Positions 8,857 through 57,160 of a DNA stretch of 64,000 nucleotides are shown here, piece by piece (the first letter of the stretch is position 1; every line of letters starts with the position of its first letter). The stretch spans positions 5,116,251 through 5,180,250 of the forward strand of contig OX637351.1 of the NCBI GenBank assembly GCA_951799405.1, in the 5' to 3' direction. Source of the DNA: Agapetus fuscipes. Its lineage: Eukaryota; Arthropoda; Insecta; Trichoptera; Glossosomatidae. The notes beneath the pieces were generated by a model, which was not told the DNA's origin, made no database searches, and worked only from the letters and a program-made list of their open reading frames with translations. The translations under genes and the position numbers were made by a program.

Positions 8857-8896
8857 ATACCTGACGATGATCAAAGATCGAAAACATTTGTAAAAT
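8857..8896 (+). ncRNA. Hammerhead-like ribozyme motif 1
   Basis: CTGACGA at 8861, stem II GATC/GATC, GAAA at 8880, then a stem III decayed from AACGTT to AACATT, then T-T and GTA pairing with TAC before the core. The usual AT-rich body (gtgaaaatatagaacagtgt) follows, and its other half (attttcacagagttaatac) occurs past the SINE-B tail at 9286. Confidence 0.6.
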
Positions 8897-9136
8897 AGAA
8901 ATAAATAATTGTATACGTGAAAATATAGAACAGTGTTTTAATTTTAATCCTAAAAAATAAATAAATAAAAGTTAATACCTATCACTTTATGTACCAAGCC
9001 CATTATGTGGGTAGGCATCTATGTTTTTATTTTATTCTGTGAACAACGTTGTCTATGAAGTATGAACTAAGTACATATGAATGCTCGAACTTGTAAGTCG
9101 GTCGTTTAATTTTTGGAAAATCGCATACCTAAACCG

Positions 9137-9150
9137 CCCCCCCCCCCCCC
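9137..9150 (+). repeat. Poly(C) run of 14
   Basis: Uninterrupted C14, the only long G/C homopolymer in the window; prone to length error in sequencing. Confidence 0.9.
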
Positions 9151-9171
9151 TTCGTCGACGGCTTATTGAAA

Positions 9172-9286
9172 AGCAACTAAGCTACCCATATAAGTAGTGT
9201 AACTTCTTGCCGCGTCACCAGCTCCCGAGTGGGCTAGTACTCATTTCTTGTGAAGGCTGAGTAAACCTGTTTTGGGGCTTGAAGTA
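9172..9286 (-). repeat. SINE-B 3' part
   Basis: Minus-strand tail (gcaactaagctacccatata, tcttgccgcg, tttcttgtgaaggctgagta), broken inside the body, directly followed by hammerhead-element sequence. Confidence 0.8.
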
Positions 9287-9375
9287 GTGTTTTAATTTAA
9301 ATTCTAAAAAAATAATAAATTATTGAATATGAATTTTCACAGAGTTAATACACAAACAATATAAAATATGATATT
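9286..9375 (+). repeat. Hammerhead-element 3' body
   Basis: agtgttttaatttaaattc, then attattgaatatgaatttt and cacagagttaatacacaaac, the shared 3' tract of the hammerhead-bearing repeat also seen near 48130, 52200, 56330 and 57110. Confidence 0.65.
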
Positions 9376-9824
9376 AACTTTTATTCACCTTCTCATAATT
9401 GTCATCATTATTCCATGCGACACAGGTCTATGTGACCAAGGTCCTTAGCAAACAATAACAACACAATAGTGTGCCTTTTCCCATGCCGTGAATTTTGTTT
9501 AGTCTATGGAATAGTGTCGAGTCCATTGAAAGCAAAACCAACCAGCCCAGCCATTCTAAATTTGAATTTTTATACCTAAACGTCAACATTCAATCATCAA
9601 TTTGATTTCTATCGAAAAGTGTTGCCATTGAAATTTCGATCGTTAGGTATTCGAATTAAAATAAATTATTATAAGCTGTTGGTATTTATTTTACGACTTG
9701 TATTTTTTTCTGCATAATATTATATTTTTAATCTCGATTCCAGTTTTCCTAATGCCAATTTTTTAAATGTCTTTGTCGTAATATATATTTTTATAACATT
9801 TAAGTAGATACCTACCCAATATAG

Positions 9825-10060
9825 TCCGTACATCAATTGACGTAGACCAAAAAATGACGTCACATCTCTGGGTTGCTAGGGAAAAGGCACGCATTTTGTT
9901 TTCTTACGGATCTTTGTAAAATTGATAAATATTTTGTTATTGGTTGCTATTCGCCAAGATACAATAATGTCTCACGCAAATGTGACGTCTCCCTGCCGAA
10001 AAAAAATGTTTTAAATTCAAATTTGTGTTGAGTCCATACATCTCCATTATTCCATAGCAT
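9825..10060 (+). repeat. Repeat-I copy
   Basis: Best-preserved copy: ttgacgtagacc, aaatgacgtcacatc, gggttgctagggaaaaggc, ttattggttgcta, then caaatgtgacgtctcc. The gacgtcacat and atgtgacgtc blocks are inverted relative to each other, suggesting a foldback element. Confidence 0.65.
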
Positions 10061-10299
10061 TTTTTTTTCTTTCTTTATATCTATAATTTAAGATGCCAAG
10101 TTCGCGCTTACTCATGCTGAATTGTTGCCCTCGCTTACTTCAACCATATCCAATGATGTACAATTTATTCTGAAATGGATGATCAGCCTCATACCAACAT
10201 TCTAGGAAAATGTCTTAAGGTGTTTATGATTGCATAGGTGTACATTAAACTAGGACTGTTGTATGTTTGCAAATTAGATAATATCAAGGTATTCTTACA

Positions 10300-10540
10300 A
10301 AAATGTAGTGGAGATCACACAAACTTCATAAACAAAAAATATATCGTCACATGGCTCGGTTGCTATGGTAAATACAAATTAATATGTAATTTATTATTGG
10401 TTGCCAATAACCTTAGGTACTGGATTGATAGACCTTTAATGTTTTCCCGCCGAAAAATAATTAATTTGGCACATTTGAGTTTGGATTTTTTTCGGCGAGT
10501 AGACTTCTTGTATGGCATTGTCCTCTTTAGCAACCTAATC
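10300..10540 (+). repeat. Repeat-I, diverged copy
   Basis: Shares the order tcgtcacatggctcggttgct, ttattattggttgcc and cccgccgaaaaa with the copy at 9825. The 101-codon frame across it has no protein-like features and is not a gene. Confidence 0.5.
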
Positions 10541-10651
10541 TAATCTATTATATTATCTAGGTTTTTGGCAGTTACTTCGTGAAAGTTCATTTTAATAGAT
10601 TAAAATAAAAAACTTATTTGTTACAATTCACATGAGCTTTTATTATTTTTT

Positions 10652-10699
10652 AAACACTACCGGTTTCGGGAGAAGCAATACCTCCCATCTTCAGGTGTA
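10652..10699 (-). ncRNA. Hammerhead-like ribozyme motif 2
   Basis: Minus strand: CTGAAGA, stem II GGGAG/CTCCC, GAAA, self-complementary ACCGGT, then A, then GTGT pairing with ACAC upstream of the core. Left arm of the palindrome. Confidence 0.65.
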
Positions 10700-10746
10700 A
10701 ATATAAACTGTTTATAAAAATAAAGTAAATATAAAAAGTTTATATT

Positions 10747-10794
10747 TACACCTGAAGATGGGAGGTATTGCTTCTCCCGAAACCGGTAGTGTTT
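10747..10794 (+). ncRNA. Hammerhead-like ribozyme motif 3
   Basis: Plus-strand mirror of motif 2: ACAC, CTGAAGA at 10752, GGGAG/CTCCC, GAAA at 10779, ACCGGT, A, GTGT. All invariant hammerhead positions that can be judged by eye are present. Confidence 0.65.
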
Positions 10795-10856
10795 AAAAAA
10801 TAATAAAAGCTCATGTGAATTGTAACAAATAAGTTTTTTATTTTAATCTATTAATC

Positions 10857-11215
10857 TAATCTAAGTTGCAAAGATATGTTACATTGGAGATTCACATTAC
10901 ATGCATTCTCACAACCAGACACGTACAAGTTCGCGCTTGCACATGCCTCATGAGAACCTACAACATAAAAACCAAATCACAAATGGACATACACCCTGCA
11001 ACTCTTGCCGTCCTTCCCTGAGACAGGGGTGACATTGGCAAAGTGAACCATTTTTACAGCATGGGTGGTCAGCCGCATACCAACCTATAAGTCAAGGAAC
11101 ATGCACGAAAAATTTCATTTTTTAAATCAATAAATAATAATTTATATGGACATAAAAAACTAAAACATAAAACAAATTTCACTTTAATAAACCCTAGTCG
11201 CCAACATTACAGCAG
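10857..11215 (-). repeat. LINE-A 3' end
   Basis: Minus strand copy with an intact UTR including the hairpin (here CCCTGAGACAGGGG), then the AT-rich linker and the start of the cgccaacattac block that follows the coding end. It is joined directly to a minus-strand repeat-I piece. Confidence 0.85.
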
Positions 11216-11320
11216 CAACCAATAACAAAATATTTGTTTGCCTTATACTTAGCAACCCGGCCGGGTGACGTCACAATATTGTCAATGTCAACCTCATTCA
11301 CAGAGCTTTGATAAATATGC
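11215..11320 (-). repeat. Repeat-I fragment
   Basis: agcaaccaataacaaaatat, cttagcaaccc and gtgacgtcaca are the reverse complement of the repeat-I core. Confidence 0.6.
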
Positions 11321-11810
11321 TTTTTTAATTGAGTTTTTTTATAACAAAGAAAAATAAACATTTCTTCAAAAGGAATGTCAACAAACACCCCAAACGCATT
11401 TATAAAATTTTCCTTTGACACAATTCAGTCGCGGTTTTAATTTTTTAAATTTACTTTTTCCAACCTACCTGCTTTTCATAAATTACGCCGGGTTGGCCGC
11501 CCTTTGTGCTAAACGCTGCGCGGTGTTGCCAGCGTCGCTGATGATGATTCCGCGGCGGAATTTAATATTTAATTTAAAATTACGCGCCAAGATGCGCGGA
11601 AAAGTTTTTTAATTAATAACGAGAAATTAATCTAAAAGTTGTTGCGCGAAACCGCCGGGATAGAGACGCCTATTTATTTGTCAATTGAACTAAAAACTTA
11701 GTCGTATTTTGAAAGATACCTGAAGTAGGTACCTACTGAATTAATTTTAGATTAGTCAATGTTTAAAAATAAGTTCTAGCCTCAGGGTTAATAAAAAAAA
11801 AAATAATGCT
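11320..11810. other. Spacer with GC-richer patch
   Basis: The stretch 11485-11600 is notably rich in CpG (ttacgccgggttggccgcc, aacgctgcgcggtgttgcc). No gene or repeat is recognised. It could be a remnant exon or promoter, but there is no frame support. Confidence 0.35.
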
Positions 11811-11811
11811 G

Positions 11812-12352
11812 TTTTTTTTGGTGAGCGCTGTTTTTGTTTGTATCACACCTCAAGAGCCCTCTGCGAGCTTGTTCATCTAATTTAAGTTGCAAAGATATGT
11901 TACATTGGAGATTCACATTACATGCATTCTCACAACCAGACACGTACAAGTTCGCGCTTTCACATGCCTCATGTGAACCTACAACATAATAACCAAATCT
12001 AAAATGGACATACACCTAGCAACTCTTGCCGTTCTTCCCTGTAACAGGGGTGACATTGGCAAAGTAAACCATTTTTACAGCATGGGTTGTCAGCCGCATA
12101 CCAACCTATAAGTCAAGGAACAAGAAAGCGTCGTTGTAGAAAGCGCCAATTCTCAAGCAAGACCCAGTTGCTGTAAGGCTGGATGGAGCTTTTTATGACC
12201 TGTCTTTGGTAATAATTATTATGAATTTTTATACCCAGCGAAGAGCACATTTGGAAATATAAATGGTATATTTTTTTGCTCCGCCAGTATTCGAATCCAC
12301 AACCTTCCATTTACGAGTCCGAAGTGTTGCCACTGGACTACGGACCGGTCCA
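11812..12352 (-). repeat. SINE-C (C1) split by a LINE-A insertion
   Basis: The C1 tail lies at 11812-11872 and the remaining body and head at about 12121-12352 (cttctcaagcaagacccagt, tccatttacgagtccgaagt, cggaccggtc). The sequence between is a complete LINE-A UTR copy. The SINE is therefore the older insertion. Confidence 0.85.
11873..12120 (-). repeat. LINE-A 3' UTR copy nested in SINE-C
   Basis: Complete UTR-only copy from catctaatttaagttgcaaag to ctataagtcaaggaac with no adjoining coding part, as if the UTR alone moved. The target duplication is not clear. Confidence 0.85.
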
Positions 12353-12362
12353 AAAAGCTAAG

Positions 12363-12680
12363 TGTTGGTATAGCTCAGTTGGTAGAGTGCTTGCATTCCA
12401 TGCCGTGAGCTCGGGTTCGAATCCCACCGAGGGTCTCAGAAATGTTTTCCCGTTTCGGTGTTTTTTTCAAACTCAAAATAAAATACTGGCAAGGTTTATT
12501 CAAGCTTCACAAGAAATGAGTACCAGCCCCCATGGGTGCTGTGAAACTCCAACTCCAACTGAAGTGGTTGGCGTAAGGCCGGCTCCCTTACCTAAAACAA
12601 ATAATAGCTTACCTCTCCACATGCGATCCCTTCGCAGAGATCGTGGCAAGAGTTGCACTATATTTGTAGCTTGGTTTGAG
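12363..12680 (+). repeat. SINE-B, near full length
   Basis: Box A tatagctcagttgg, box B gggttcgaatccc, body with aaataaaatactggcaagg and ccaactgaagtgg, and tail tatttgtagcttgg. It starts a few bases after the SINE-C head. Confidence 0.9.
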
Positions 12681-12689
12681 AAAATATAT

Positions 12690-12815
12690 GTATGACCCTG
12701 ACCGCTCATACTGTAAGAAATGGTACACTTTGCCGATGGCACCCCTGTTTCAAGAAAAGACGGCTGGTACATATGTATGCAGCATGTGTAAATGCGAACT
12801 TACGCGTTTTTTATG
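12690..12815 (+). repeat. LINE-A 3' UTR fragment
   Basis: gaccctgaccgctcatactg, ggtacactttgccgatggc and tgcagcatgtgtaaatgcg mark a diverged internal UTR piece. Confidence 0.7.
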
Positions 12816-12904
12816 ATTGCTTTATCGTTCGTTCCGCTTCTCTCTGTATTGTCTAACTATTCTTAAAAACTATATATCAACTTATTCTTACATTCTTCTT
12901 CTCT

Positions 12905-13306
12905 AGTTTTAATCCTGAGATTGGCTTGCAGCAATTTCTTTCACTCTTCTCCTCCATTCTTCCCTGTCTTGTGCGGCTCTTTCAAGGTCTGCATATGATG
13001 AGCAGCTCACGTCCACCAACAGGTCCTCCAGGTATTCTTGGCGTGGGCGTCCCCTAGAGTTGCTCCCCTCGGTCATATCCCCTCCATTATGGCATGCAAG
13101 AGGCCTTGTATTACATGGCCGATCCATCTTGCACGCCTTTCGGACAAGGCCCTGAGCAGATGCCTTCCTACTTCGATTCTTTGGAGAACCTCCTCATTTG
13201 TAGAGTGGTCTCTCCAGGAAATTCCAAGTAGTCTCTAGTCTCCGTTTATCTCTTTTCGATAGGCACCATGTCTCGCAGCCGTACATCATGATACTCCATA
13301 CATTTG
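12905..13306 (-). mobile_element. Non-LTR retrotransposon ORF2 C-terminal fragment
   Basis: On the minus strand the frame contains a degraded RT-distal tail: MYGCETW near the 5' side, then SRGRPRQEYLEDLLVD and DREEWRRRVKEIAASQ followed by a stop. YGCETW-to-RGRPR-to-DREEWR is the usual order after the reverse-transcriptase domain in RTE- and CR1-like LINEs. Several stops interrupt it. It is a different LINE from F1, F2 and A. Confidence 0.8.
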
Positions 13307-13425
13307 TCAACGACGATACCATGTTGAAAGCACCGGTTCTCATCAGATCACCGAAGTTAAGCAACATTGGGCGCGGATGCTACTTAGATGGGTGACTGTT
13401 AGGTACACCGCGTGTCGTTAGCATT
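13307..13425 (+). pseudogene. 5S rRNA-like head of a SINE
   Basis: This stretch aligns by eye to almost the whole of animal 5S rRNA: gtcaacgacgataccatgtt, the accggttctcatc block, then gatcaccgaagttaagcaac, attgggcgcgg, tacttagatgggtgac and the terminal caccgcgtg. The internal Pol III control regions (box A and box C equivalents) are therefore present. It is continuous with the SINE-C tRNA-like head, so it is the 5' module of a chimeric SINE and not a 5S gene. Confidence 0.85.
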
Positions 13426-13750
13426 CTTGACCGGTCCGTAGTCCAGTGGCAACACTTCGGACTCGTAAATGAATCCCGGCGGAGCACAAAAAAATATACC
13501 ATTTATATTTCCAAATATGCTCTTCGCTGGGTTGAAAAAAATCATAAAACTTTTACCAACGACCGGTCACTAAAGGTCCATCCAGCCTTACAGCAACTGG
13601 GTCTTGCTTGAGTATTGGCACTTTGTAGCGACGACAAAGCTCGTACACGTCTGCGGCACAAAAAGTACCATAGACCCCAGTGATATGATAGACCCCTAGA
13701 GTCTCTAGAAACTAGGGAGTCTCCCGCACAGGATTTCTTAAAAAAAACAT
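13426..13750 (+). repeat. SINE-C (C2 tail), body of the 5S-tRNA chimera
   Basis: Begins gaccggtccgtagtccagtgg. A short deletion removes part of the box B region (aaatgaatcccgg). The common body follows (gctcttcgctgggttg, tccagccttacagcaactgg), then an alternative tail: ctgcggcac, ccctagagtctctag, ggagtctcccgcacaggatt and an A-rich end. The same tail occurs on the minus strand at 47150. Confidence 0.85.
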
Positions 13751-14905: not shown

Positions 14906-14908
14906 AAT

Positions 14909-15369: not shown

Positions 15370-15375
15370 TTAAAA

Positions 15376-16765: not shown

Positions 16766-16812
16766 CACTCTTGATAATGACCTGAATATTAAAGGTCGAA
16801 AGTACTTGAGGT
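16766..16812 (+). ncRNA. Hammerhead-like ribozyme motif 4 (variant core)
   Basis: TTGATAA replaces CTGATGA. Stem II GACC/GGTC, GAAA and self-complementary AGTACT follow, then T, then GAG pairing with CTC before the core. The downstream tract atgaaaataaaact is shared with the copy at 56221. The core changes would probably abolish cleavage. Confidence 0.5.
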
Positions 16813-19896: not shown

Positions 19897-20265
19897 CACG
19901 CAACTAAGCTACACATATAGTGTAGGAATATTTTAAATTAATCAAGTGAAACACTGTGGTAAACCATTATAAAGGTTTGTTTTACAATAATATATATATT
20001 TTTTTTGAAATTAAAGGTTTGTTTTTTATTTAATTTATCTCAACGTTTTCAGTATCTCTACCATATTCGGTTGAACTTATACATATGGTTCATTTATAAG
20101 TTCAACCGAAGATGGTAAGTAAATATACTGAAAATGTTCTTGAAATAAATTAAATAAAAAAACAAAGTTGTAATTTTTAATTTTTTAAATATTTATTATT
20201 ATTTTAAAATAAACCTTTATGTAGTGTAACTCCTTGCCGCGTTATTCCCGAAGGGTTTATTGACG
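19897..20265 (-). repeat. SINE-B tail split by a hammerhead-bearing hairpin element
   Basis: The tail end (gcaactaagctacacatata) lies at 19897-19930 and resumes at about 20219 (gtgtaactccttgccgcg). TAGTGTA occurs on both sides of the insert, consistent with a target duplication. Confidence 0.75.
19931..20218. mobile_element. Foldback element with two degenerate hammerhead cores
   Basis: The arms around aagttcaaccga are inverted about the centre near 20088. In each arm the order CCGAATA or CCGAAGA, stem, GAAA, then ACGTT or ATGTT recalls the hammerhead core with the first U changed to C. Flanking homopolymers and repeated aaggtttgttttt motifs surround it. Confidence 0.55.
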
Positions 20266-24389: not shown

Positions 24390-24856
24390 TAATATCAGTG
24401 GTTTTGTGATGGCTTTCTCTAGATAGAAACTTTGTTGTCATTGGCATAACCTCATTTTTACTATTTTTTAAAATAAATGCCAGTATTAGGGACACCAAAA
24501 TCTCTTTTGTCCCAATTACTGGCAGGGGTGCCCATGATAGGTGCAAGCTGAAACCTGTTATGTCCCTATTATTGGCATTCATTTTTTTTGACCTCTGAAG
24601 TTTCTTATTTTAAGTTACAGTACAATGGATAAGAAAATGGAAACTACATACTTATTATCAGGAGAGATCATTTTAAGCAACTTAGAAAAAAACTCTTAAT
24701 AAGTCCTTTTTTCTCTCACATTCTGCCGAACGTTCTTCAGCGGCGCTATAATTTTCATTTACTTTTAATTTTTTTACAATTTCAGTTAGACAAATACGAT
24801 ACTTATTGCTCAAATTTCTTTCTTTTACAGATGTATGATGGGATCCAAAGAGAAAA

Positions 24857-25587
24857 ATGTATGATGGCGCAGACATGGTCAAAGTAATTGCTGCTGTCAC
24901 GTCAGGGAAATTAGTCCCAACCCCACAGAATTGGACAAACTCACGGGCTTCAGTCACCAAAGAGAAATTTATCAGATGGCATGCGGAAATCCATGAGTAC
25001 CTACAGAGCAAGAGGTTTGTGATAGACCCGGAGAAGCCAAATATCTTAGACCCTGACAACACATTAGGTGATCGCATGATCATTAATGCCGATGACACAA
25101 AAGATCCAGAGCGGATTTTTAATGCTGATGAAGCAGTTCTTTTTCTTAGTCTTAAAGGAGATAAAGTACTTGGTATAATACTCGTAGCATTTTACCCGAA
25201 TGCCACTCACATCATTCAGCCGATGGATGTCGCTGTCTTTCCAAGCTTAAAGCATTCATGGAAGGAAGAAACCAACACATGCAGACACATAATATGCACT
25301 ACGAATTGAAGAAAAAAGACTTCGCTCCCCTCCTAGCATCCTCAATTCAGAAATCTGTCAAACCTGATACTTTGAAGAATGGTTTTCGCAAGTACGGACT
25401 CTTTCCGTGGAACGTTAATGCAATTGACTTCAGCAAAATTCCGTTTGTGAATCATTCAAGCACTAAAAATGCACCAGAACAAGATGGAGATGAAGATATA
25501 CTTGATAAACTACTTTCCAGACTAGAAACTAGTAGGACCAGTAAAATAACAAAGTTTCAGGAAATGTTTGGATATGGAAGCGAATGA
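24857..25587 (+). pseudogene. Tigger-like transposase pseudogene (DDE_1 superfamily)
   Basis: The first 150-codon frame contains the DDE_1 landmarks IFNADE (first catalytic Asp, residue 91) and NATHIIQPMDVAVF (last catalytic Asp, residue 124). Only 33 residues separate them, so a block including the middle Asp-Gly/Asn motif has been deleted between GDKVLG and IILVAF. A frameshift around 25260-25300 moves the frame to one reading KKKDFAPLLASSIQ and GFRKYGLFPWNVNAID, the normal C-terminal part of Tigger transposases. After a stop at 25585, an acidic-basic tail in the same frame continues to 25833. The N-terminal DNA-binding helix-turn-helix is not recognisable. The protein cannot be functional. 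Confidence 0.9.
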
Positions 25588-31059: not shown

Positions 31060-31555
31060 ATCTAATCTAATCTAAGCTGCAAAGATATATATCATTTAAG
31101 ATTTATATTAAATGCATTCCCACAAGCAGACATGTATAATTTCGCGCTAACACATGCCGCATGTGGACCTACAATATAAAAACCCAATCTCAAATGAACA
31201 TAAGCCCTGCAACTCTTGCCGTCCTTCCCTGAAACAGGGGTGACATTGGCAAAGTGAACCATTTTTTACAGTATGGGTTGTCAGCCGCATACCAACCTAT
31301 AAGTCAAGGAACATACATCACAAATTACATTTTTTAAATCAATAAATAATAATATAAACATGGACATTAAAAAAAAACTAAATCATAAAACCAATTTCAC
31401 TTTAATAATCCCTAGCCGCCAACATTACTGATCAACCGCCATTTCTTTCTATCCTTACATACTTCTTTCATTTCCTCCAGAGTCATAACCTTCTTCATAC
31501 AAGCTCTTCTTTTATCATGACTCTGGATATTCTACTCCAACTTATGTAGATAAAA
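31060..31555 (-). mobile_element. LINE-A reference copy: coding end plus 3' UTR
   Basis: Best example linking the commonest repeat to a non-LTR element. On the minus strand the sequence first reads as an ORF2 C-terminus (atatccagagtcatgataaa, gctcttgtatgaagaagg, then the KEVCKDRKKWR-like end), followed by an AT-rich linker and the roughly 250-bp UTR. The UTR has two self-complementary parts, CCCTGTTTCAGGG and CACATGCGGCATGTG, and ends in (AGATT)n. This shows the abundant UTR-only copies derive from a LINE 3' end. Confidence 0.85.
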
Positions 31556-36079: not shown

Positions 36080-36410
36080 TGCCTCTCTCAGAAAATAATT
36101 CTATGGTTCTCTGTTACCTACAAAGGCAAGTAAAAAACTTCCTTCTCATGAAGTGAAATATAATTAACGGAGAATAACGCATGCAGAAGCAGTGTGTAAG
36201 TTTATACGAGAATCTTCACTCTCTCGGATGGCTGGATCAGACTGGTCTCTTTTAGCAGCAAGTAGCAAGTGGCAAATAGCAAGTGGCGAGTAGCAAGTGG
36301 CGAGTGATTCGTGAACTAAAGTGTTCAGGCATAAAGTGCGTACATTGGACCTGTAATAGGTAGGTACACATTAACTTGGAAAAACTTTATTTCTTCTATA
36401 TTTGTTATGG
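36080..36410. other. Spacer with a short tandem repeat
   Basis: At 36246-36308 there are several units of agcaagtggc / gagtagcaagtggc. Otherwise unique. Confidence 0.55.
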
Positions 36411-36575
36411 TTTGTATATTAACAATGTGAAAAATCATATTGATTGATTTATTTTTATTTTTTAGATACAAAATTCTATTTAAACACTGTTTCTTTTCAC
36501 ATATATCGATTTATTTTATTTAAAAATTACAAACGTTTTCGACCTTATAGGTCATCATCAGGTAAAAATACCTAT
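36411..36575 (-). mobile_element. Hammerhead-bearing repeat
   Basis: Body on the minus strand: shared tract with gtgaaaa and cagtgttt-like words, ending atggtttgtatattaacaat at its 3' side. The ribozyme motif is at its 5' side. Confidence 0.65.
36525..36567 (-). ncRNA. Hammerhead-like ribozyme motif 6
   Basis: Minus strand: TTAC, CTGATGA, stem II GACC/GGTC, GAAA, self-complementary AACGTT, T, GTAA. Stem I is four perfect pairs and every core residue matches the consensus. Confidence 0.7.
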
Positions 36576-36589
36576 TTTTCTTCTTTATG

Positions 36590-37080: not shown

Positions 37081-37126
37081 TTTCTCTACGTTTCATCGGA
37101 GTCATATCCGACGTCTTCAGGAGACG
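37081..37126 (-). ncRNA. Hammerhead-like ribozyme motif 7
   Basis: Minus strand: TCTC, CTGAAGA, a six-pair stem II (CGTCGG/CCGATG with one G-T), GAAA, ACGT, A, GAGA. Stem I is fully complementary. Confidence 0.7.
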
Positions 37127-37657: not shown

Positions 37658-37935
37658 GACCGGTCCGTAGTCTAGTGGTCAACACTTCTGACTCGTAAAT
37701 GGAAGGTTGTAGGTTCGAATCTCGACAGAACACACAAAAAATATACCATTTATATTTTCAAATATGCTCTTCGCTGGGTGAAAAATTCATATAGGTACCT
37801 TTACCAAAGACCGGTCACTAAAGGTCCATCAAGCCTTACAGCGACTGGGTATTGCTTGGGAATTGCCGATTTCTATAGCGACGACCAAGCTTGCAGAGGG
37901 CTCTTGAATTGTGATTCACATAAAACCAAATATAT
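37658..37935 (+). repeat. SINE-C (C1), near full length
   Basis: gaccggtccgtagtctagtg, ggttgtaggttcgaatctcg, body, and tail gcagagggctcttgaattgt. Confidence 0.9.
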
Positions 37936-40472: not shown

Positions 40473-40700
40473 CGACCGGTCCGTAGTCTAGTGGTTAACA
40501 CTTCTGACTCGTAAATGGAAGGTTATGGGTTCAAATCCCGGCGGAGCACAAAAGTATATCATTCAAATTTTCAAATAAGCTCTTCGCTGGGTTGAAAAGT
40601 TCATATATCTTTTACTAAATACCGTTTCCCGTAAGGTCCATCCAGACTTACAGCAACTGGGTCTCGCTTGAGAATTGGAGCTTTTTATAGTGACGACGTA
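40473..40700 (+). repeat. SINE-C, 3' truncated
   Basis: gaccggtccgtagtctagtg, ggttatgggttcaaatcccg and body to atagtgacgacg, then a break before the C1 tail. Confidence 0.85.
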
Positions 40701-40826: not shown

Positions 40827-40885
40827 ATGGTTTTTAAAAATGGACTTTCACTGTGTTAATAAATCCACCCTAAAAAATACAATTG

Positions 40886-41390
40886 TATATTGTTGCCGAC
40901 CCTGATGTATGGAAGCGAGTCGTGGACGGTGAATCAAAGAGAAGTAAATAAGGTATGCACCGTAGAAATGGTTCATTTGAGAAGTATGACAGGAAAACCC
41001 CTAAAAGATAGAGTGAGAAACAAATGGGTTCGGAATGAATGCGGAGTAAAAGAAAGCGTGAAACGGAAAGTTCAAAGAAGTGTGATGCGATGGTTTGGAC
41101 ATATTGAAAGGATGAATGGAGACCGACTGACAAAAAAAGTGTATAAAGGGAATTTAATAGGTAAGCATGGAAGGGAAAGACCTAGGAAAGAATGGATTGA
41201 TCAGATAAGTGATATTGCGAATGAATGGAATCTACAGAGTGGAAACAAGAGAAGAGCGTGCATTAAAAGAGTGATGAAACTAGATGAGATGAAAGAAGTA
41301 TGCAAGGACAGAGTCAAGTGGAAGCACTTGTGTGGAGGTACCGGCCACCCCAAGGGGAATGGCGGCAGGATGTAAGACAAGACAGAGATC
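40886..41390 (+). mobile_element. LINE-F1 ORF2 C-terminus, open frame, plus UTR
   Basis: A 161-codon frame without stops: MLPTLMYGSESWTVNQREVN, then RSVMRWFGHIERMNGDRLTK, GKHGRERPRKEWIDQISDIA, NEWNLQSGNKRRACIKRVMK and KLDEMKEVCKDRVKW. This is the region after the RT domain of a non-LTR retrotransposon. The frame runs through CGGTGHPKGNGGRM because the usual stop is altered. The UTR ends with agacaagacagag. The copy is 5'-truncated at about 40886 next to hammerhead-element sequence. Confidence 0.92.
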
Positions 41391-43636: not shown

Positions 43637-44045
43637 TGACAAACGATCGATATCCCGGAATCGCAGACTTTTGCGACCGGTATAGCGCCATCTGCAATCT
43701 ATAGGCTAGTATTTGAGGCAATTCTCATTCAATTTATCCTTTTTCTCAGACAAATGATTGATTACCAGGTATCCCGGTCATTTGTAACCGGAATAAAGTA
43801 ACCTAAAGGCCGGTATTTGAAGCAATTCTGACTCTGGTTATCTTTTTTCTTAAACCAATGATTAATTACCAGGTATCCCGGTCATTTGTAACCGGAATAA
43901 AGTAACCTAAAGGCCGGTATTGGAAGCAATTCTGACTCTGGTTATCTTTTTTCTTAGACAAATGATTGATAACCAGGTATCTCAGTCAATTGTAACCGGA
44001 ATAAAGTTACCTAAAGGCCGGTATTGGAAGCAATTCTGAATTAAA
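43637..44045 (+). repeat. 104-bp tandem repeat, about 4 units
   Basis: The word ccaggtatc recurs at 43765, 43869 and 43973, exactly 104 bases apart. A diverged first unit begins near 43637 (gatatcccggaatcg). Units share aaccggaataaagt, aaaggccggtatt and gaagcaattctgactctgg. Confidence 0.9.
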
Positions 44046-48130: not shown

Positions 48131-48300
48131 GTATGGTTTGTGTATAGTATAATATTAACACTGTGAAAATTCATATTCAATAATTTATTTAGTTTAAGGA
48201 TTTAAATCAAACACTGTTCTATATTTTCACTTTTATAATTTTTATTTTTAAATTTTACTAACGTTTTCGATCTTAGATCATCGTCAGGTATACAAAATTT
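48130..48300 (-). mobile_element. Hammerhead-bearing repeat, best body
   Basis: Minus strand order: ribozyme motif, aaaattataaaagtgaaaat, agaacagtgtttgatttaaa, then gaatatgaattttcacagtg and a cacaaaccat end. This is the template for recognising truncated copies. Confidence 0.7.
48254..48293 (-). ncRNA. Hammerhead-like ribozyme motif 9
   Basis: Minus strand: TAC, CTGACGA, stem II GATC/GATC, GAAA, self-complementary AACGTT, A, GTA. Confidence 0.68.
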
Positions 48301-50603: not shown

Positions 50604-50650
50604 TAAGTTGACCGGTTTCGGCCTCTAGGCCATCTTCAGAGTAACTAAAG
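50604..50650 (-). ncRNA. Hammerhead-like ribozyme motif 10
   Basis: Minus strand: CTGAAGA, perfect stem II GGCC/GGCC, GAAA, self-complementary ACCGGT, C, then AACT. Stem I needs a three-base bulge (AGTT-act) and is the weakest of the set. Confidence 0.5.
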
Positions 50651-50689
50651 TCTTAAAAATAGTGCGAGACTATATAATTTTTTTTAAAT

Positions 50690-51715: not shown

Positions 51716-51799
51716 CTCTTCCCTGAAAAAGTGAATCTGGCAAAGCGCCTCTTTAGTGCATGTTGGTATTATCTCAAACAGGGGTAATTTCACATAAGC

Positions 51800-51910
51800 A
51801 ATGTATGTATGTATGTTAATTAAATAAACAAAGTTGTAATTCACTTTTATAAATTTTTATTTTTGTCTAGCACTTTCGCCTACAAGGCATCATCAGGGCA
51901 ATTGTATGAG
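51800..51910 (-). mobile_element. Hammerhead-bearing repeat fragment
   Basis: Body words aataaacaaagttgtaattc and acttttataaatttttattt precede the motif on the plus-strand view; similar words flank the foldback near 20160. Confidence 0.6.
51864..51902 (-). ncRNA. Hammerhead-like ribozyme motif 11
   Basis: Minus strand: TTGCC, CTGATGA, stem II GCCT/AGGC, GAAA, AGTGCT (self-pairs with two G-U), A, GACAA pairing four of five. Confidence 0.62.
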
Positions 51911-52199
51911 GACTGTGTATGTATGTTTCTGAAATAAAAGTCTACTAAATACTCGTAGAAGTTTCGCTTTACCTTATTGTCTACGCTACGTAATGCTTTG
52001 TAGCGTTAGGATTATACAATAAATATTCGTAACTGAGTCAGAGCTACGAGAAACAGGGTTGCCACATTGCTGGGAATAAAACTATCGGGAAATACGTTTT
52101 AATTTCGAAAACCGCCTTGTTTTATTCTGAGGTTTTTTTTAAAATAATACCATCGATAATAACTGTTAGCTATAATAATTATGTTGTATTTTTATTTTT

Positions 52200-52390
52200 T
52201 ATGGTTTGTGTATTAATTAACACCGTGAAAATTCATTGTTAATTATTTCTATACAATACTTAAAAGAACACCAAAGTAACTTTTTTTTAAAACACTGCTT
52301 AATTTCACTCGTTTTTTTATTTTATATTTACTAATGTTTTCGTTCATATATTGACCATCATCAGGTATTTAGATTTTTATTATTTTATTT
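52200..52390 (-). mobile_element. Hammerhead-bearing repeat
   Basis: Minus strand: motif, then taaataaaaaaacgagtgaa, agcagtgttttaaaaaaa, and gaattttcacggtgttaatt, ending acacaaaccat. Confidence 0.68.
52327..52370 (-). ncRNA. Hammerhead-like ribozyme motif 12
   Basis: Minus strand: TAC, CTGATGA, stem II GGTCA/TGAAC with one mismatch, GAAA, AACATT (a likely CpG-decay form of AACGTT), A, GTA. Confidence 0.6.
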
Positions 52391-52419
52391 TCAGGTATTA
52401 ATTAAATTATAAATTTATC

Positions 52420-52645
52420 GTTCGTATGTGGCTGACGATCCATGCAGTAGAAAACTCTCCAATGCTACCCCTGTTTCAGCCATAGTTGCAAGGTGTATAT
52501 TCATTTGAGATTTGGATTTTTATGTTATAGGTTCACATGCGGCATGTTAAAGCGCGAACATATACGTGTCTGCTTGTGAAAATGCATATAATGTGAATTC
52601 ACAATGTTACATATCTTTACATCTTAGATTAGATTAGATTAGATT
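52420..52645 (+). repeat. LINE-A 3' UTR copy
   Basis: cgttcgtatgtggctgacga to acatcttagattagattagattag, with small internal deletions. Confidence 0.82.
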
Positions 52646-52649
52646 TGTG

Positions 52650-52882
52650 GTATTTCTTGACTTATAGGTTGGTATACGGCTGACTTTCCATGCTGTAAAA
52701 ACTTTGTTCACTTCTGTGAATGCCACCCCGCTGACACGGAGAGGCGGCAGGAGTTGCTTGGTTTTTGTTCATGTAAGGTTTGATCTATTTTGTAATTACA
52801 CATGCAGCGAACTTACAAGTGTCTGCTGCGTGAGATATTTTTGCGGAAATACCAATTTATCTTTGCAACTTAGATTGAAGAT
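52650..52882 (+). repeat. LINE-A subfamily A2 UTR
   Basis: tttcttgacttataggttgg, caccccgctgacacggagag, and gcaacttagattgaagat. Confidence 0.82.
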
Positions 52883-53155
52883 CGATAGATTTCTGTCTTT
52901 TCACGGTATTCTGTATTTCCAACACCCTGCAAGCTCTCTCGCCAATCGAATCTCGTCCGTACTGCTTTCCTTCTTATATTTGCGCTGCCTGCCTTTACAA
53001 ATGAAGTTGCTTGGTCCTCGTAGACTAAGTCAGCTCTACGCCGAACAACTGCCAATCAAATATTCAACCTCTCTGCAGACATTTCAAAGGTAGAACCTCA
53101 TCATTCGTACGCACCATTTCTGTGGAATTCAATGTTCGTCGCCAAATACTCATTT
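52883..53155. other. Spacer, nothing recognised
   Basis: A frame runs through from the preceding repeat but has no recognisable content. The stretch has coding-like composition around 52920-53080 without a supported product. Confidence 0.35.
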
Positions 53156-53159
53156 GAAC

Positions 53160-53415
53160 CATGATTTATAGAACTTCAAGTCCTGGGCTGGAAGTCTCAT
53201 CACCACGGTAATTTTTACCAAGCGAATATCGGTAATATTTGCTTGAAAACCTGTCAGTCCAAGATGGCCGCCAGTGAACAGCTGATTAGTCTTCATACAA
53301 TTCGGTTGGTAAGAATGACCGTGGGGATGAGACTTCCAGCCCAAGAATCATAAGTTTGTCAAAGCGTGGGCTCAACCGACGACTAAAATGTCTTAAAATA
53401 GCCCCGTTAGATACT
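53160..53415. mobile_element. MITE-G copy 2
   Basis: gggctggaagtctcatcacc, cctgtcagtccaagatggcc, gccagtgaacagctgattag, and the right inverted end gcgtgggctcaaccgacgac, ending aatagcccc. The outer part of the left end is missing. Confidence 0.82.
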
Positions 53416-53740
53416 AAACTTAAAACTAATAACATGACTAGCAATGCTTCTTTAAATGAAAGGGGAGCTACTCTATGGTCGGCTGGGTCATGTGCCAGTC
53501 TGTTGGAGCTGCCGAAAAGACAATCAAGTACAGTCTTCGGGAACCGCTCTTTCCGTGTTGCCGGGCCAGCGGCATGGAATGCTCTCCCAGAGAGGCTGAG
53601 AGTCCAGGAAGATGAGACAGCCGGAAGATGCTCAAGGCATTCCTGTTTTCCCGCTAGAGCCCACATGCGCCTTTGTAGTGATGTAAATCACAAAAAGGCG
53701 CATATAAATCTAGTTTATTGTTATTATTATTAATGAAGAT
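53416..53740 (+). mobile_element. Non-LTR ORF2 C-terminus
   Basis: Frame: LLELPKRQSSTVFGNRSFRV, AGPAAWNALPERLRVQEDE, then HMRLCSDVNHKKAHINLVYC and a (TTA)n tail. FGxRxFxVAGPAAWNxLP is the conserved ORF2 end. The first 40 codons of the frame belong to MITE-G, so the long frame is a chance fusion. Confidence 0.88.
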
Positions 53741-53789
53741 GGGGGAGGGAGTGGGGCTAAAATTGAAGGAGGGGGGAGGGTTAAGTAAA

Positions 53790-54165
53790 GTTACGAATGG
53801 GTTCTAAATGAATGCGGAGTAAAAGAAAGCGTGAAAGTGAAAGTTCAAAGAAGTGTGATGCGATGGTTTGGACATATTGAAAGGATGAATGAATACCGAC
53901 TGACAAAAAGAGTGTATAAAGGGAATGTAATAGGTAAGCGTGGAAGGGGAAGACCTAGAAAAGAATGGATTGATCAGATAAGTGAGATTGCGAATGAATG
54001 GAATTTACAGAGTGGAAACAAGAGAAGAGCATGCATGAAAAGAGTGATGAAATTAGATGAGATGAAAGAAGTATGCAGGGACAGAGTCAAGTGGAGGCAC
54101 TTGTGTGGAGGTACTGGCCACCCCTAGAGGAATGGCGGCAGGATACAAGACAAGACAAGACAATG
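53790..54165 (+). mobile_element. LINE-F1 ORF2 C-terminus plus (ACAAG)n tail
   Basis: 98-codon frame: KVKVQRSVMRWFGHIERMNE, YRLTKRVYKGNVIGKRGRGR, PRKEWIDQISEIANEWNLQS, KRVMKLDEMKEVCRDRVKWR, HLCGGTGHP and a stop, then ggaatggcggcaggat and acaagacaagacaagaca. It shows the true F1 stop and tail missing from the 40886 copy. Confidence 0.92.
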
Positions 54166-54322
54166 GGCGGGATCTGGAAGTTACTGAGGTTGTTTTTATT
54201 AATCTTAAAAAACGATTTTTTTTCTAACATTTCAATGATGATTTTTTTATTCATTTAAGTGTTCGAAAAGTTATTTATTCATATTTTTTGATCAAATACT
54301 TAAAATTGAATTCCACAATGTT

Positions 54323-54493
54323 TCACCAAAACAATTTGAAAAGTCCATACGAATTCCGAGAGTTTCCCATTGTTTCTCCTTGTCCAGTTCCTGTAGTGTG
54401 CCATAGACAAACACGGCAGCACTTATCCATCTTAATTCCATCTGCTTCTTTACCGGCAGCGAGAGTTCTTTCTGCTCCGAGTATATTCTTCCC
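54323..54493 (-). CDS. Candidate exon with a ZAD-like start
   Basis: On the minus strand an acceptor (ccctctcttttag) is followed by 21 open codons and an ATG at 54430 giving MDKCCRVCLWHTTGTGQGET and MGNSRNSYGLFKLFW before TGA at 54323. The CRVCL motif near Met is the signature start of insect ZAD zinc-finger-associated domains, and ZAD exons usually continue with LxxIF-like words, here GLFKLF. A donor inside the frame is not obvious (GTATGG near 54349 is weak). It lies between repeats but is itself unique. It could be a real first coding exon, a decayed one, or chance. Confidence 0.3.
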   Translation of the reverse strand, partial: GKNILGAERTLAAGKEADGIKMDKCCRVCLWHTTGTGQGETMGNSRNSYGLFKLFW

Positions 54494-54599
54494 CTAAAAG
54501 AGAGGGTTAATATTATATCGCTGGGGTACTAAGTGAAAGACTAATAAATCTAGCCAAGTGGATTTGGAAAAAGTATTTATTTTAGCTTGATTACTTCTA

Positions 54600-54825
54600 T
54601 AATTCAGTATGCAAAGATTTATAAAATGTAACTTATTGTATATTATGTTCCTTGATTTGTAGGTTGGTATGTGTCTGACCACTCATGCTATAGAAAATGG
54701 TTCACTTTTCCAATGTCACCTCTGTTTCAGGGAAGGTCGGAAAGAGTTGCAGGGTATGTGCTCATTTGAGATTTGGGTTTTTATGTTGTAGGTTCACATA
54801 TGCAAGCGCGAACTTGTGCGTATCT
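54600..54825 (+). repeat. LINE-A 3' UTR, 3' truncated
   Basis: Linker (aaaatgtaacttattgtata), gttccttgatttgtaggttg, complete to gcaagcgcgaacttgtgcg. Confidence 0.85.
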
Positions 54826-55018
54826 TCATACAAGCTCTCCTATTATTATGACTCTGGATATCCCATTCATTCGCTATTTCAGATATTTCGTCCATCCATG
54901 CCTTCCTCGGTCTTTCTCTACCACGACATCCATCTATTCTTGCAACGTATACTTTCTTCGTCAGTCTTTCCTCCTTCATTTTCTCCATATGCCCAAACCA
55001 TCTTGCATCTGTTAACAT
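54826..55018 (-). mobile_element. LINE ORF2 fragment, probably LINE-A coding region
   Basis: Minus-strand frame: ARWFGHMEKMKEERLTKKVY, VARIDGCRGRERPRKAWMDE, ISEIANEWDIQSHNNRRACM. The end (ggatatccagagtcataata, ggagagcttgtatgaag) matches the LINE-A coding end, so this is likely the LINE-A protein just upstream of the UTR. Confidence 0.85.
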
Positions 55019-55027
55019 TTCTATTTA

Positions 55028-55235
55028 TTCTTTGACTTATAGGTTGGTATGAGGCTGACCACCCGTACTGTAAAAAAATGGTTCACTTTGCCAATGCCAC
55101 CCCTGTTTCAGGGAAGGTCGGCAAGAGTTGCAGGGCTTATGTTCATTTGCTATACATGTCTGCTTGCGGGAATGCGTTCAATATGAATCTTAAATGGTAT
55201 ATATCTTTGCAGCTTATATTTAGGTTTAGATTTAG
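55028..55235 (+). repeat. LINE-A 3' UTR with internal deletion
   Basis: ctttgacttataggttggta to ttcatttgc, then a jump to tgtctgcttgcgggaatgcg and gcagcttatattta. Confidence 0.82.
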
Positions 55236-55620
55236 ACTTAAAAGATTTTTGTTCTACAAAAGGATTGCAGAGCAACTATATTTTTTTCGGTCCTTACATC
55301 AAGAGTCATAATTTTCTCGAATAAAAAATGTATCTCAAAAAATTTTGATGCTGTTTATTCAAGTACGGCCTTACAAGCATAATCCATTGTGCGATAATTA
55401 AAACTATTCCAGGGGCTATAAATCAGGGCCCGCTCTCTGTGTGTACGGGGCCGCGGCCAGGGGCGCGCAACGTCCGGTACTTTATTAAAAGATGATTCCT
55501 TGTAGAGGGTCGGGCCGTACATCACAACGCCACCCCTGGATTAGACTAGGGCCAAATAAAGTCGGCGAAATTTTTGAGTTTATTTTTATTTTAAAATTAA
55601 ATACACTCGCCACATTTAAG
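55235..55620. other. Spacer with a GC-rich block
   Basis: 55425-55560 is markedly GC-rich (ggggccgcggccaggggcgc). It contains a small inverted pair ccaggggcg / cgccacccctgg about 60 bp apart that may be hAT-like termini; unproven. Confidence 0.35.
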
Positions 55621-55624
55621 TTTA

Positions 55625-55750
55625 CCGGTCCGAATATGAATTTTTCACCCAGCGAAGAGCGTATTTGAAAATATAAATGGTATATTTTATTGTGCTCCGC
55701 CGGAATTCGAACCCACAACCTTCCATTTACGAGTCAGAACCACTAGAGTT
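55625..55750 (-). repeat. SINE-C 5' half
   Basis: Body (cacccagcgaagagcgtatt) to box B (cggaattcgaacccac) and a shortened head (acgagtcagaaccactag). Confidence 0.82.
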
Positions 55751-56075
55751 TGGCTGGGAGGCGTTAATGCATCCACCATATAGCCCTGACCTTGCACCTT
55801 CAGATTTTTACTTGGGTCTCTTCTGAATGTTTTAGGCAGTGTCAGGTCAACATCAAGAGAGGACTGCCAAAACTACTTGTTGCGTTTTTTCGATCAGTAG
55901 TCCCAAAATTTCTACAGCAACGGGATCATGTCTCTACCTACAAGATTGCAGATAACCTACGAACAAAATGACACATATTATGTACTGTAATTAAATGTAA
56001 ATTAACTTTGAAAAAAAATTACCTTAATTTTCATAAAAAATTCGAAGAAACTTTTTCTTCGACCTATTATTATCA
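55750..56075 (+). pseudogene. mariner transposase C-terminal fragment
   Basis: One frame reads WEALMHPPYSPDLAPSDFYL, GLF and a stop. PPYSPDLAPSDF is the invariant mariner motif that holds the third catalytic Asp. Downstream, the typical C-terminal words are present only as fragments over several frames. The sequence ends with cgaagaaactttttcttcga, a plausible inner terminal repeat. The 5' two thirds of the gene are absent and it abuts a SINE-C. Confidence 0.88.
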
Positions 56076-56077
56076 CA

Positions 56078-56140
56078 ATCAGACACGTATATGTTAGCGC
56101 TTGCACATGCCACATGTGAACCTACAACATAAAAACCCAG
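56078..56140 (-). repeat. LINE-A 3' UTR fragment
   Basis: cacaatcagacacgtatatg, agcgcttgcacatgccacat, ctacaacataaaaaccca. Confidence 0.75.
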
Positions 56141-56149
56141 TCGTACCTT

Positions 56150-56360
56150 GTCGTACCTAATTCATTATTTTTATTTTATTTCTCTATGGTGTTTGTCTTG
56201 TCAATTTTTGTAATTTAGTATCCTCTTGATAATGACGTGAATAAGTCGAAAGTACTTGAGGTGGAATTAAATACTCAATTTGTGAAAATAAAACTCTGTG
56301 TTTTTTTTTATAATTTCTTATAAAAATGAATTTTCACTGTGTGAATACACAAACTTTAAA
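56150..56360 (+). mobile_element. Hammerhead-bearing repeat, nested in LINE-A UTR
   Basis: Lies between two halves of a minus-strand LINE-A UTR: aaaacccagtcgt stops before it and aaaacccagttctcaaatga resumes after it. Motif, gaggtggaattaaatactca, tgtgaaaataaaactctgtg, then aaaaatgaattttcactgtg and gaatacacaaac. The near-complete 3' end is visible here. Confidence 0.72.
56221..56262 (+). ncRNA. Hammerhead-like ribozyme motif 13 (variant core)
   Basis: CCTC, TTGATAA, stem II GAC/GTC, GAAA, self-complementary AGTACT, T, GAGG. Stem I is four perfect pairs; the core has the same two changes as motif 4, so the two belong to one subfamily. Confidence 0.52.
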
Positions 56361-56364
56361 AAGT

Positions 56365-56510
56365 CTAAAAACCCAGTTCTCAAATGAACACACACCCTGC
56401 AACTCTATCCGACCTTCCCTGAAACAGGGGTGACATTAGCAAAGTAAGCCATTTTACAGCATGGATGGTCAGCCGCATACCAACCTATAACTTAAGTAAC
56501 AACAAGAATT
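56365..56510 (-). repeat. LINE-A 3' UTR, second half of the interrupted copy
   Basis: aacccagttctcaaatgaac to caacctataacttaag. Confidence 0.82.
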
Positions 56511-56985
56511 GGCTAAGAATCCCTTAAAATTTGTGTTTGTGAAATTGTGCAAAAGTTTTTGCCTGCACACATACGTCGTCCTCTAATAATTGTAATGATT
56601 TTCATCTTTCCTTGGTACACACTTCACCTCGGTGATATACCACCACCGCCCTCTTTCTTTTTGTAATCTCACTTGGAGACCTTCTCCTTATGGATCACCA
56701 AAACTCCAAGTCCCAAACATCGACCACACTCCTAAATAAATAAAAATGTGAGAAAACTCAAACGCTCACCTGATTTGCAATTGTATTTTTCTTATATTTC
56801 TTGAATGAACGCCGTGGTGCAGGTTAAACGTTCACTAAGAAAAGCAGATTTACCGAGTGAAGATTTGCCACAATGGAGAAAATAATTCAGATTTAATGTC
56901 GCAGGGATAAGAAATGCCTGCGATTTTTATCCGAGACATTCAAATTAACAAAACGTTGAGGAATTTTCGTGGTAAATATAAAATA
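56510..56985. other. Spacer, nothing recognised
   Basis: Unique; the frames are short. ttcacctcggtgatatacca and gaacgccgtggtgcagg are not from any named family. Confidence 0.4.
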
Positions 56986-57160
56986 TAGTTAGCCTCTGAT
57001 GATGAACCGAGCAGGTTCGACAGCGCTTAGGCATTATAACTCATATATGTGAAAATAAAAACTATGTGTTTTTTTTAAATAAAAAAGTTTTTTAATTATT
57101 TAATTAAAAATGAATTTTCACTCGGTGAATGTGCAAACATTAGAAAATTTATAAAATATA
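56985..57160 (+). mobile_element. Hammerhead-bearing repeat
   Basis: Motif, then catatatgtgaaaataaaaa, ctatgtgttttttttaaata, aaaaatgaattttcactcgg and tgaatgtgcaaac. Confidence 0.68.
56992..57034 (+). ncRNA. Hammerhead-like ribozyme motif 14
   Basis: GCCT, CTGATGA, stem II GAACC/GGTTC, GACA (one change from GAAA), self-complementary AGCGCT, T, AGGC. Stems I, II and III are all fully paired; the GAAA-to-GACA change should impair catalysis. Confidence 0.55.

What the first reader, a model, noticed from the sequence alone, without database searches (positions are those of the whole stretch)
8857..57034. About 16 hammerhead-ribozyme-like motifs with visible covariation
Sixteen sites (8861, 10664, 10752, 16771, 20047, 20106, 26213, 36537, 37091, 40796, 48265, 50616, 51873, 52338, 56226 and 56996, either strand; two at 20047/20106 degenerate) share one plan: stem I strand, CTGANGA, stem II, GAAA, a 4-6 base self-complementary block ending in T, a non-G base, second stem I strand. 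Between copies stem I changes (ACAC/GTGT, TTAC/GTAA, TCTC/GAGA, CCTC/GAGG, GCCT/AGGC), stem II changes (GGGAG/CTCCC, GACC/GGTC, GCCT/AGGC, GAACC/GGTTC), and stem III changes (ACCGGT, AACGTT, AGTACT, AATATT, AGCGCT), yet pairing is mostly kept. The base before the expected cleavage point is never G. Established: Penelope-like elements and retrozymes carry type I hammerheads with very short stem III that work as dimers. Inference: these are such ribozymes or their fossils.
Basis: partly seen in the sequence, partly recalled or inferred. Interest (0 to 1): 0.88.

Follow-up and report, generated by a model that had tools for sequence, protein, structure and literature searches.

The report
Ribozyme-tipped ends of Penelope retrotransposons
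The window, apparently from a moth or butterfly genome, is littered with short end-pieces of Penelope retrotransposons, many of them starting with a hammerhead self-cutting RNA motif; one large family carries a matched double change inside the catalytic core that would be worth testing for activity.

Summary
The motifs are real. A strict hammerhead grammar finds 6 sites against a mean of 0.010 in 200 shuffles; 11 aligned copies pair 89.3% of helix cells, with covariation. Rfam models miss them.

The copies are solo pseudo-LTRs of Penelope-like elements, about 100-180 bp: hammerhead at or near the 5' edge, the longer ones ending about 14 codons into an ORF (MNFHSVNTQTIQNI), several with 8-12 bp target duplications, some in head-to-head pairs. 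In one genome locus a GIY-YIG ORF lies upstream of the hammerhead. TATA- and initiator-like sequence and a cluster of insertion 5' ends suggest that the RNA begins with the hammerhead.

A known kind with a new twist: at least 1826 copies carry U3-A8 instead of C3-G8, while single changes are rare (35 and 60). Cleavage was not tested.

The parts
8856..8894 (+). HHR, C3-G8, U10, H17=T; stem III decayed to AACATT; unit interrupted, resumes near 9329
9329..9370 (+). ORF start MNFHRVNTQTI, read as the rest of the 8861 unit displaced by an insertion
10536..10863 (.). one insertion holding two head-to-head pLTRs, flanked by 12-bp direct repeat TAATCTAATCTA (10536-10547 and 10852-10863); the 12-mer also occurs 7 times elsewhere in the window
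10653..10699 (-). HHR, left arm; arm continues to ATG at 10590 (MNFHEVTAKNLDNII)
10747..10793 (+). HHR, right arm (no ORF tail); the homodimer minimum-energy fold is the dimeric hammerhead
16766..16812 (+). HHR with U3-A8 core (TTGATAA), U10
20101..20144 (+). degenerate HHR copy, right arm of a head-to-head pair
   Evidence: 26.5 bits
20037..20072 (-). wrecked left arm of the same pair
   Evidence: 9.3 bits, noise level; sequence
36526..36566 (-). HHR, C3-G8, U10; unit to ORF start at 36438; candidate TSD AGAAGAAA at 36577-36584 and 36390-36397 (5% of shuffles do as well)
37082..37125 (-). HHR of a second family (C10, 4-nt stem III ACGT); 26213 looks like a damaged relative
   Evidence: 16.7 bits
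40785..40824 (-). HHR, C3-G8, U10, stem III AATATT, H17=C
48254..48292 (-). HHR, C3-G8, U10; unit to ORF start at 48174
50605..50644 (-). HHR, stem II GGCC/GGCC, stem III ACCGGT, weak stem I; ORF start MEFYKVSAETF about 135 nt downstream
51863..51901 (-). HHR; short unit with TSD AACATACATACA at 51916-51927 and 51806-51817 (0 of 200 shuffles)
52327..52369 (-). HHR, partly decayed; unit to ORF start at 52236; candidate TSD AATAAAAAT at 52373-52381 and 52188-52196 (a longer match, TTAATTAATAC, lies further out on the 5' side and inside the unit on the 3' side)
56221..56262 (+). HHR with U3-A8 core; unit to ORF start at 56326 (MNFHCVNTQTLKSL)
56991..57033 (+). HHR with A14 to C; unit to ORF start at 57110 (MNFHSVNVQTLENL); TSD TATAAAATATA at 56977-56987 and 57150-57160 (0 of 200 shuffles)

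Best explanation
The motifs are minimal type I hammerhead ribozymes at or near the 5' edge of solo pseudo-LTRs (pLTRs) of several Penelope-like retroelement families, most of them decaying. Proposed working: a pLTR promoter starts RNA 4-7 nt before C3, so the hammerhead is the first 40 or so nt of the transcript (inferred from sequence and insertion ends). The element's enzyme starts reverse transcription internally, at one of two sites: just before the ATG, or about 44 nt into the ORF. Copying then runs to the RNA 5' end or stops short of it. A transcript of a single element can therefore yield only a hammerhead-plus-leader insert of about 170 bp, and these dead-end inserts pile up (inferred). 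Initiation on both DNA strands, or self-priming, joins two such cDNAs head to head (arrangement shown, route inferred). Inserts that contain the whole hammerhead came from uncleaved RNA. The ribozyme, probably as a dimer through its palindromic stem III or with protein help, would act on tandem or full-length RNAs at another step (inferred, untested).
For: Motif beyond chance and covariation; again on 24 distinct copies from loci chosen by ORF start, not by hammerhead: 90.9% paired against 77.4% shuffled, though that alignment was fitted to the model. Hammerhead near the 5' edge: upstream similarity z>3 in 1 of 65 pairs of window copies, downstream in 20 of 65. TSDs in window units. Shared ORF-start peptide. 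Head-to-head: all 15 neighbours closer than 800 bp among 100 listed places are divergent, and all 5 among the 73 of 100 listed U3-A8 places that lie on C1. In 16 pairs that I picked and fetched, the ATG is found in exactly one arm in 13, in neither in 3, in both in none; candidate TSD offset by 34-46 nt in 13 of 16. GIY-YIG ORF upstream of the hammerhead on the same strand in L245 (PF01541, E 1.8e-4, 22.2 bits, just under the 22.6 cut-off); another in L247, 22.9 bits, 3.2 kb upstream of a hammerhead. Published pLTR anatomy and head-to-head layout: PMC3846280 passages. Internal RT start and both-strand priming: PMC11167929 main text. 5' ends of 40 tail copies, chosen without regard to the hammerhead: 11 lie at -20..0, 5 of them exactly at -4. 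TATA- and Inr-like upstream.
Against: Rfam hammerhead models give no hit at E up to 10. No Penelope RT or GIY-YIG was found in the window parts scanned (not all frames were covered). L245's GIY-YIG score is just under Pfam's cut-off, and a protein search with the L247 ORF found no homologue. No RT domain was shown in any locus. 15 of 40 tail copies begin downstream of the hammerhead (4 of them one deleted subfamily) and 7 extend upstream of -21 (5 of these are the very copies used as references), so the 5' edge is a cluster, not a rule. L322/L323 look like one pair with the tail in both arms, against the one-arm pattern. Only 1 of 40 begins near the cleavage site, so the inserts give no sign of in-vivo cleavage. 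The dimer fold is well above the minimum in 8 of 13 copies. Promoter and TSS are read from sequence only.
Confidence: 0.85

Rival explanations
1. Animal retrozymes: small non-autonomous elements whose tandem hammerheads release circular RNAs.
For: Type I hammerheads in units of about 100-180 nt; animal retrozymes are about 170-400 nt (PMC7229834, abstract and part 1 of 3 of Results).
Against: No same-strand neighbours closer than 800 bp among 173 listed places (100 + 73; one same-strand pair 1.7 kb apart). Units with the tail stop inside an ORF start, and L245 links the family to GIY-YIG.
Confidence: 0.06
2. A conserved DNA or RNA hairpin (promoter or RT recognition structure) that only looks like a hammerhead and never cleaves.
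For: An alternative hairpin pairing the core with stem III and stem I reaches 80.9-83.6% paired cells and also beats all 500 shuffles on that measure; PAc insertion does not need cleavage (PMC11167929); no 5' ends cluster at the cleavage site.
Against: The alternative's own extra helix is only 71-76% paired and much of its covariation comes from stem II, which both structures share. N7 takes all four bases and H17 is never G in 78 pooled copies, and 10.1-11.1 and 15.1-16.1 are the only fixed pairs.
Confidence: 0.1
3. Head-to-head pairs come from self-priming (cDNA snap-back) rather than initiation on both strands.
For: Arms are 98-100% identical in 15 of 16 pairs; PMC3846280 favours self-priming for Penelope palindromes.
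Against: The arms mostly end at two different RT start sites, with the ORF start found in one arm only in 13 of 16, which two separate initiations explain more simply. L322/L323 look like an exception.
Confidence: 0.35
4. Chance matches picked out of AT-rich repeats.
Against: Shuffle, decoy-core and genome controls.
Confidence: 0.01

Closest known systems
Penelope/Poseidon-type Penelope-like element pLTRs (Adineta vaga Pen families; Anolis PAc)
   Same: Short pLTR (181-218 bp in A. vaga) containing the first dozen codons of the ORF, optional tail, short TSDs (8-10 bp there, 8-12 here), head-to-head inverted pLTRs, solo pLTRs (PMC3846280 passages); hammerhead at the pLTR-ORF junction, GIY-YIG endonuclease (PMC11167929 main text).
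   Different: Here the ORF starts some 100 nt downstream of the hammerhead, whereas in PAc it starts at stem II. Hammerhead-bearing copies number at least 3157 + 1826 exact pattern matches here. U10 is near-universal and one large family has U3-A8.
Chrysanthemum chlorotic mottle viroid plus-strand hammerhead (extra A10)
   Same: Extra nucleotide between A9 and G10.1; changing A10 to U is reported to raise the trans-cleaving rate 3-4 fold (PMC3705267 passage).
   Different: Here U10 is the rule in thousands of genomic type I copies.
Animal retrozymes with type I hammerheads
   Same: Type I hammerhead in a short retroelement unit.
   Different: No close tandem arrangement among the listed places and no evidence of circles here; the units carry the start of a protein-coding ORF.

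Membership tests
Hammerhead ribozyme, type I | CUGANGA / GAA core with N7 free | tested here: met
   10 of 13 window copies have the exact core; N7 is T41, A20, G11, C6 across 78 pooled copies. Exceptions: 16771 and 56226 (U3-A8), 56996 (A14 to C).
Hammerhead ribozyme, type I | three covarying helices, open helix I, A15.1-U16.1 | tested here: met
   second set
Hammerhead ribozyme, type I | H17 is not G | tested here: met
   0 of 13 and 0 of 78; the wrecked 20047 arm has G as I read it
Hammerhead ribozyme, type I | match to the Rfam hammerhead models | tested here: not met
   no hit; the extra U10 and the loop-free stem III are my explanation
Hammerhead ribozyme, type I | self-cleavage at H17 | not testable with these tools
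   needs transcripts
Penelope-like element | pLTR with start of ORF, TSD, inverted head-to-head arrangement | tested here: met
Penelope-like element | GIY-YIG endonuclease next to the pLTR | tested here: met
   L245: ORF ends 551 nt upstream of C3 on the same strand; 22.2 bits, just under the 22.6 cut-off. L247 above the cut-off but 3.2 kb from the hammerhead on its strand. Not found in the parts of the window scanned
Penelope-like element | telomerase-like reverse transcriptase | not tested
   no RT-bearing copy was fetched; searches of the genome for GIY-YIG-bearing copies did not complete
Retrozyme | tandem hammerhead units, circular RNA | tested here: not met
   no same-strand neighbours below 800 bp among 173 listed places, one at 1.7 kb; circular RNA not testable

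The most novel reading that the evidence does not exclude
The U3-A8 family is a natural, working hammerhead in which the C3-G8 tertiary pair has been replaced by a matched A-U pair, and in these elements the hammerhead is the very first segment of the mRNA. It could thus remove the capped 5' end and decide between translation and template fate.
Probability: 0.3. Interest if true: 0.75.

Novelty: new variant of a known kind. Interest (0 to 1): 0.55.

Why it matters
The role of hammerheads in Penelope elements is open: PAc inserts without cleavage and cleaves only with its protein present (PMC11167929). More than 1400 exact tail copies in one genome turn that into something countable. In the 40 examined, 5' ends cluster just before C3 and not at the cleavage site, and paired arms mostly use two different RT start sites. 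The U3-A8 family is a ready natural experiment on the C3-G8 core pair. The near-universal U10, together with the loop-free stem III, may explain why standard models miss such ribozymes; a model allowing U10 might find many more.

Tried and rejected
Rfam at gathering, at E up to 10, and on a 100-base stretch: no hammerhead. The miRNA-family hits at 10607-10839 fall on the inverted pair and are not taken as miRNAs.

Alternative hairpin for the core: worse than the hammerhead (in one search the register was one off from what I meant, 62 is the intended one).

Searches for relatives elsewhere: the strict pattern gives 0 hits in GTDB contigs.

Pfam on window frames (stops as X) and on 10 of 69 listed window ORFs: no Penelope domain. 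Only part of the six frames was covered. One search scanned only one strand of L245-L247 and found nothing; some searches found the GIY-YIG ORFs on the other strand.

Idea that the hammerhead is always the 5' end: weakened (15 of 40 start downstream, 6 inside it, 7 upstream of -21).

Idea that inserts start at the cleavage site: 1 of 40 at +33, no enrichment.

Idea that U3-A8 is just decay of two copies: rejected by 1826 exact copies against 35 and 60 single mutants. It may still be one founding event, and A8 also happens to pair with stem III in the alternative hairpin.


Full report
OBSERVATION. The 16 sites were read from the sequence. Thirteen carry the plan stem I, core, stem II, GAA (GAC in one), a self-complementary 4-6 base block starting with A and ending with T, a non-G base, stem I. 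All thirteen have one base more than a textbook hammerhead, between A9 and stem II. With a strict grammar the window has 6 hits, all with the extra base; 200 dinucleotide shuffles average 0.010, and every other ordering of the core letters gives 0. Of 79 viral-contig stretches holding core plus GAAA plus palindrome-like block, none has both stems.

STRUCTURE. On 11 aligned copies 89.3% of cells are paired (63.7% after shuffling), 9 of 11 pairs show both-side changes (shuffled mean 6.8; 34 of 500 shuffles reach 9), and the two constant pairs are 10.1-11.1 and 15.1-16.1. A set of 24 distinct copies, from 29 loci fetched only because they hold the downstream ORF start, gives 90.9% against 77.4% (12 pairs counted, the 3-8 pair included; the alignment was fitted to the model). 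Across 78 pooled copies N7 takes all four bases and H17 is T29, C27, A22, G0; a few of the 78 are chance matches. Rfam models do not see the motifs.

U10. In the 618-Mb genome of the window (148 contigs) the pattern with T at this place has 3157 exact matches, with A, C or G 20, with no base 2 (reversed controls 0, 0 and 1). PMC3705267 (passages) reports that replacing the natural extra A10 of a viroid hammerhead by U raises the rate 3-4 fold. In PAc the ORF is said to begin at the start of stem II, after C3 and G8, with the cut 26 bp on; ATG = A9-U10-G10.1 would fit that, so U10 may be general in this clade (inference; I did not see the PAc sequence).

THE CARRIER. Window copies are similar downstream but not upstream of the hammerhead (20 of 65 against 1 of 65 pairs with z>3). 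Downstream come an AT-rich leader and, in copies with the tail, an ORF start, MNFHSVNTQTIQNI or MEFYNVSAKTFQKL in fresh genome copies, after which the sequence becomes flank. Direct repeats flank several window units. AACATACATACA (51896) and TATAAAATATA (56996) are not matched by any of 200 shuffles; TAATCTAATCTA flanks the 10694/10752 pair but also occurs 7 more times in the window; AGAAGAAA (36561) and AATAAAAAT (52364) are weaker. For 8861, 16771, 40819, 48287 and 56226 nothing beats the shuffles at 5%; for 50639 the best match is an A-rich 10-mer 45 nt upstream. 10694/10752 form one head-to-head insertion. Among 100 listed genome places all 15 neighbours closer than 800 bp are divergent. 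In 16 fetched pairs the ATG was found in exactly one arm in 13, in neither in 3; L322/L323 look like a pair with two tails. In locus L245 a GIY-YIG ORF ends 551 nt upstream of the hammerhead on the same strand (22.2 bits, cut-off 22.6). These match pLTRs of Penelope elements as described in PMC3846280 (passages: pLTRs of 181-218 bp with the first 12 codons, optional tail on one inverted pLTR, 8-10 bp TSD, head-to-head most frequent) and PMC11167929 (main text read: internal RT start, both strands cleaved and extended, tail lies between two RT start sites).

5' ENDS. Of 60 distinct hammerhead copies in fetched loci, reference copies included, 16 extend at least 41 nt upstream in common with the references and 44 at most 20 nt. 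At least four of the 44 (L210, L217, L221, one arm of L247) visibly carry a diverged version of the same upstream sequence, so the split is less clean than the numbers. Long copies show TATATA at -36..-31 and TCAGTT with its A at -7 in one family, ATAAAAT at -35..-29 and TCATAC with its A at -4 in another; that these resemble TATA and the insect initiator is recalled knowledge. In 40 tail copies (the first 40 of 100 listed, of 1433 in all) taken without regard to the hammerhead, 5' ends lie at or before -21 in 7 (5 of them the reference copies themselves), at -20..0 in 11 (5 exactly at -4, the A of TCATAC), inside the hammerhead in 6, at +33 in 1, further on in 15 (4 of one deleted subfamily). 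So inserts that hold the hammerhead came from RNA not cleaved there.

THE U3-A8 FAMILY. 16771 and 56226 have TTGATAA. The genome holds 1826 exact copies of this core with intact stem II, against 3157 with C3-G8, 35 with C3-A8 and 60 with U3-G8 (phi 0.96). PMC11167929 reports that C3G and G8C each abolish, and together partly restore, cleavage in PAc. The double change keeps a Watson-Crick pair, and the copies seen keep U10, stems, GAA and a non-G H17. It may descend from one event, and its activity is unknown. One search of the held library for the specific mutation names listed 4 papers, none of which by title and abstract start reports a natural U3-A8 hammerhead (passages of one of them, PMC7151607, seen); that is a thin search.

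HOST AND DENSITY. The only named organism among 27 hits for a window ORF is Parnassius mnemosyne, and 5S-derived SINEs, which the two 5S-like stretches here may be, are described in Lepidoptera (PMC10886601 passages). The window has 14 model hits at E<0.05, 12 of them the model's own copies and a duplicate of one; 50 kb from five other places has 2.

VERDICT. The class is known; U10 as a near-rule, the U3-A8 family and the genomic read-out of RT start and stop points are the new parts.

Noticed in passing
window, about 40 places, e.g. 1770-1987, 10852-11141, 31061-31355: A family of roughly 290-bp repeats (TCTAATCTAATCTAAGCTGCAAAG...) with some 40 or more full or partial copies in 64 kb; one starts at the right edge of the 10694/10752 hammerhead pair. 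In all, 45.5% of the window matches itself elsewhere.
   Followed up: partly
13306-13423 (+), 62434-62546 (-): Two 5S-rRNA-like stretches (Rfam 82.6 and 59.2 bits), possibly SINE3-type heads.
   Followed up: no
40474-40697 and relatives at 37658, 47237, 57453, 62163: Repeat family with a weak tRNA-like head (27.9 bits, just under the family cut-off; repeats), a likely tRNA-derived SINE.
   Followed up: no
40863-41375 (+) and 53789-54127 (+): 365 bp conserved at 93% between two places; the ORF at the first has 27 protein homologues with no Pfam domain listed, one named from Parnassius mnemosyne.
   Followed up: partly
24839-25309 (+): Weak DDE_1 match (E 0.0028, below the cut-off), possibly a decayed transposase.
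   Followed up: no
L262, L264, L270, L273, L277, L278: In several head-to-head pairs one arm is fuller and the other begins inside or near loop II of the hammerhead (by eye), as if joining or self-priming favoured that hairpin.
   Followed up: no
43709-44039 and 63704-64000: Tandem arrays with periods of 104 and 42 bp.
   Followed up: no
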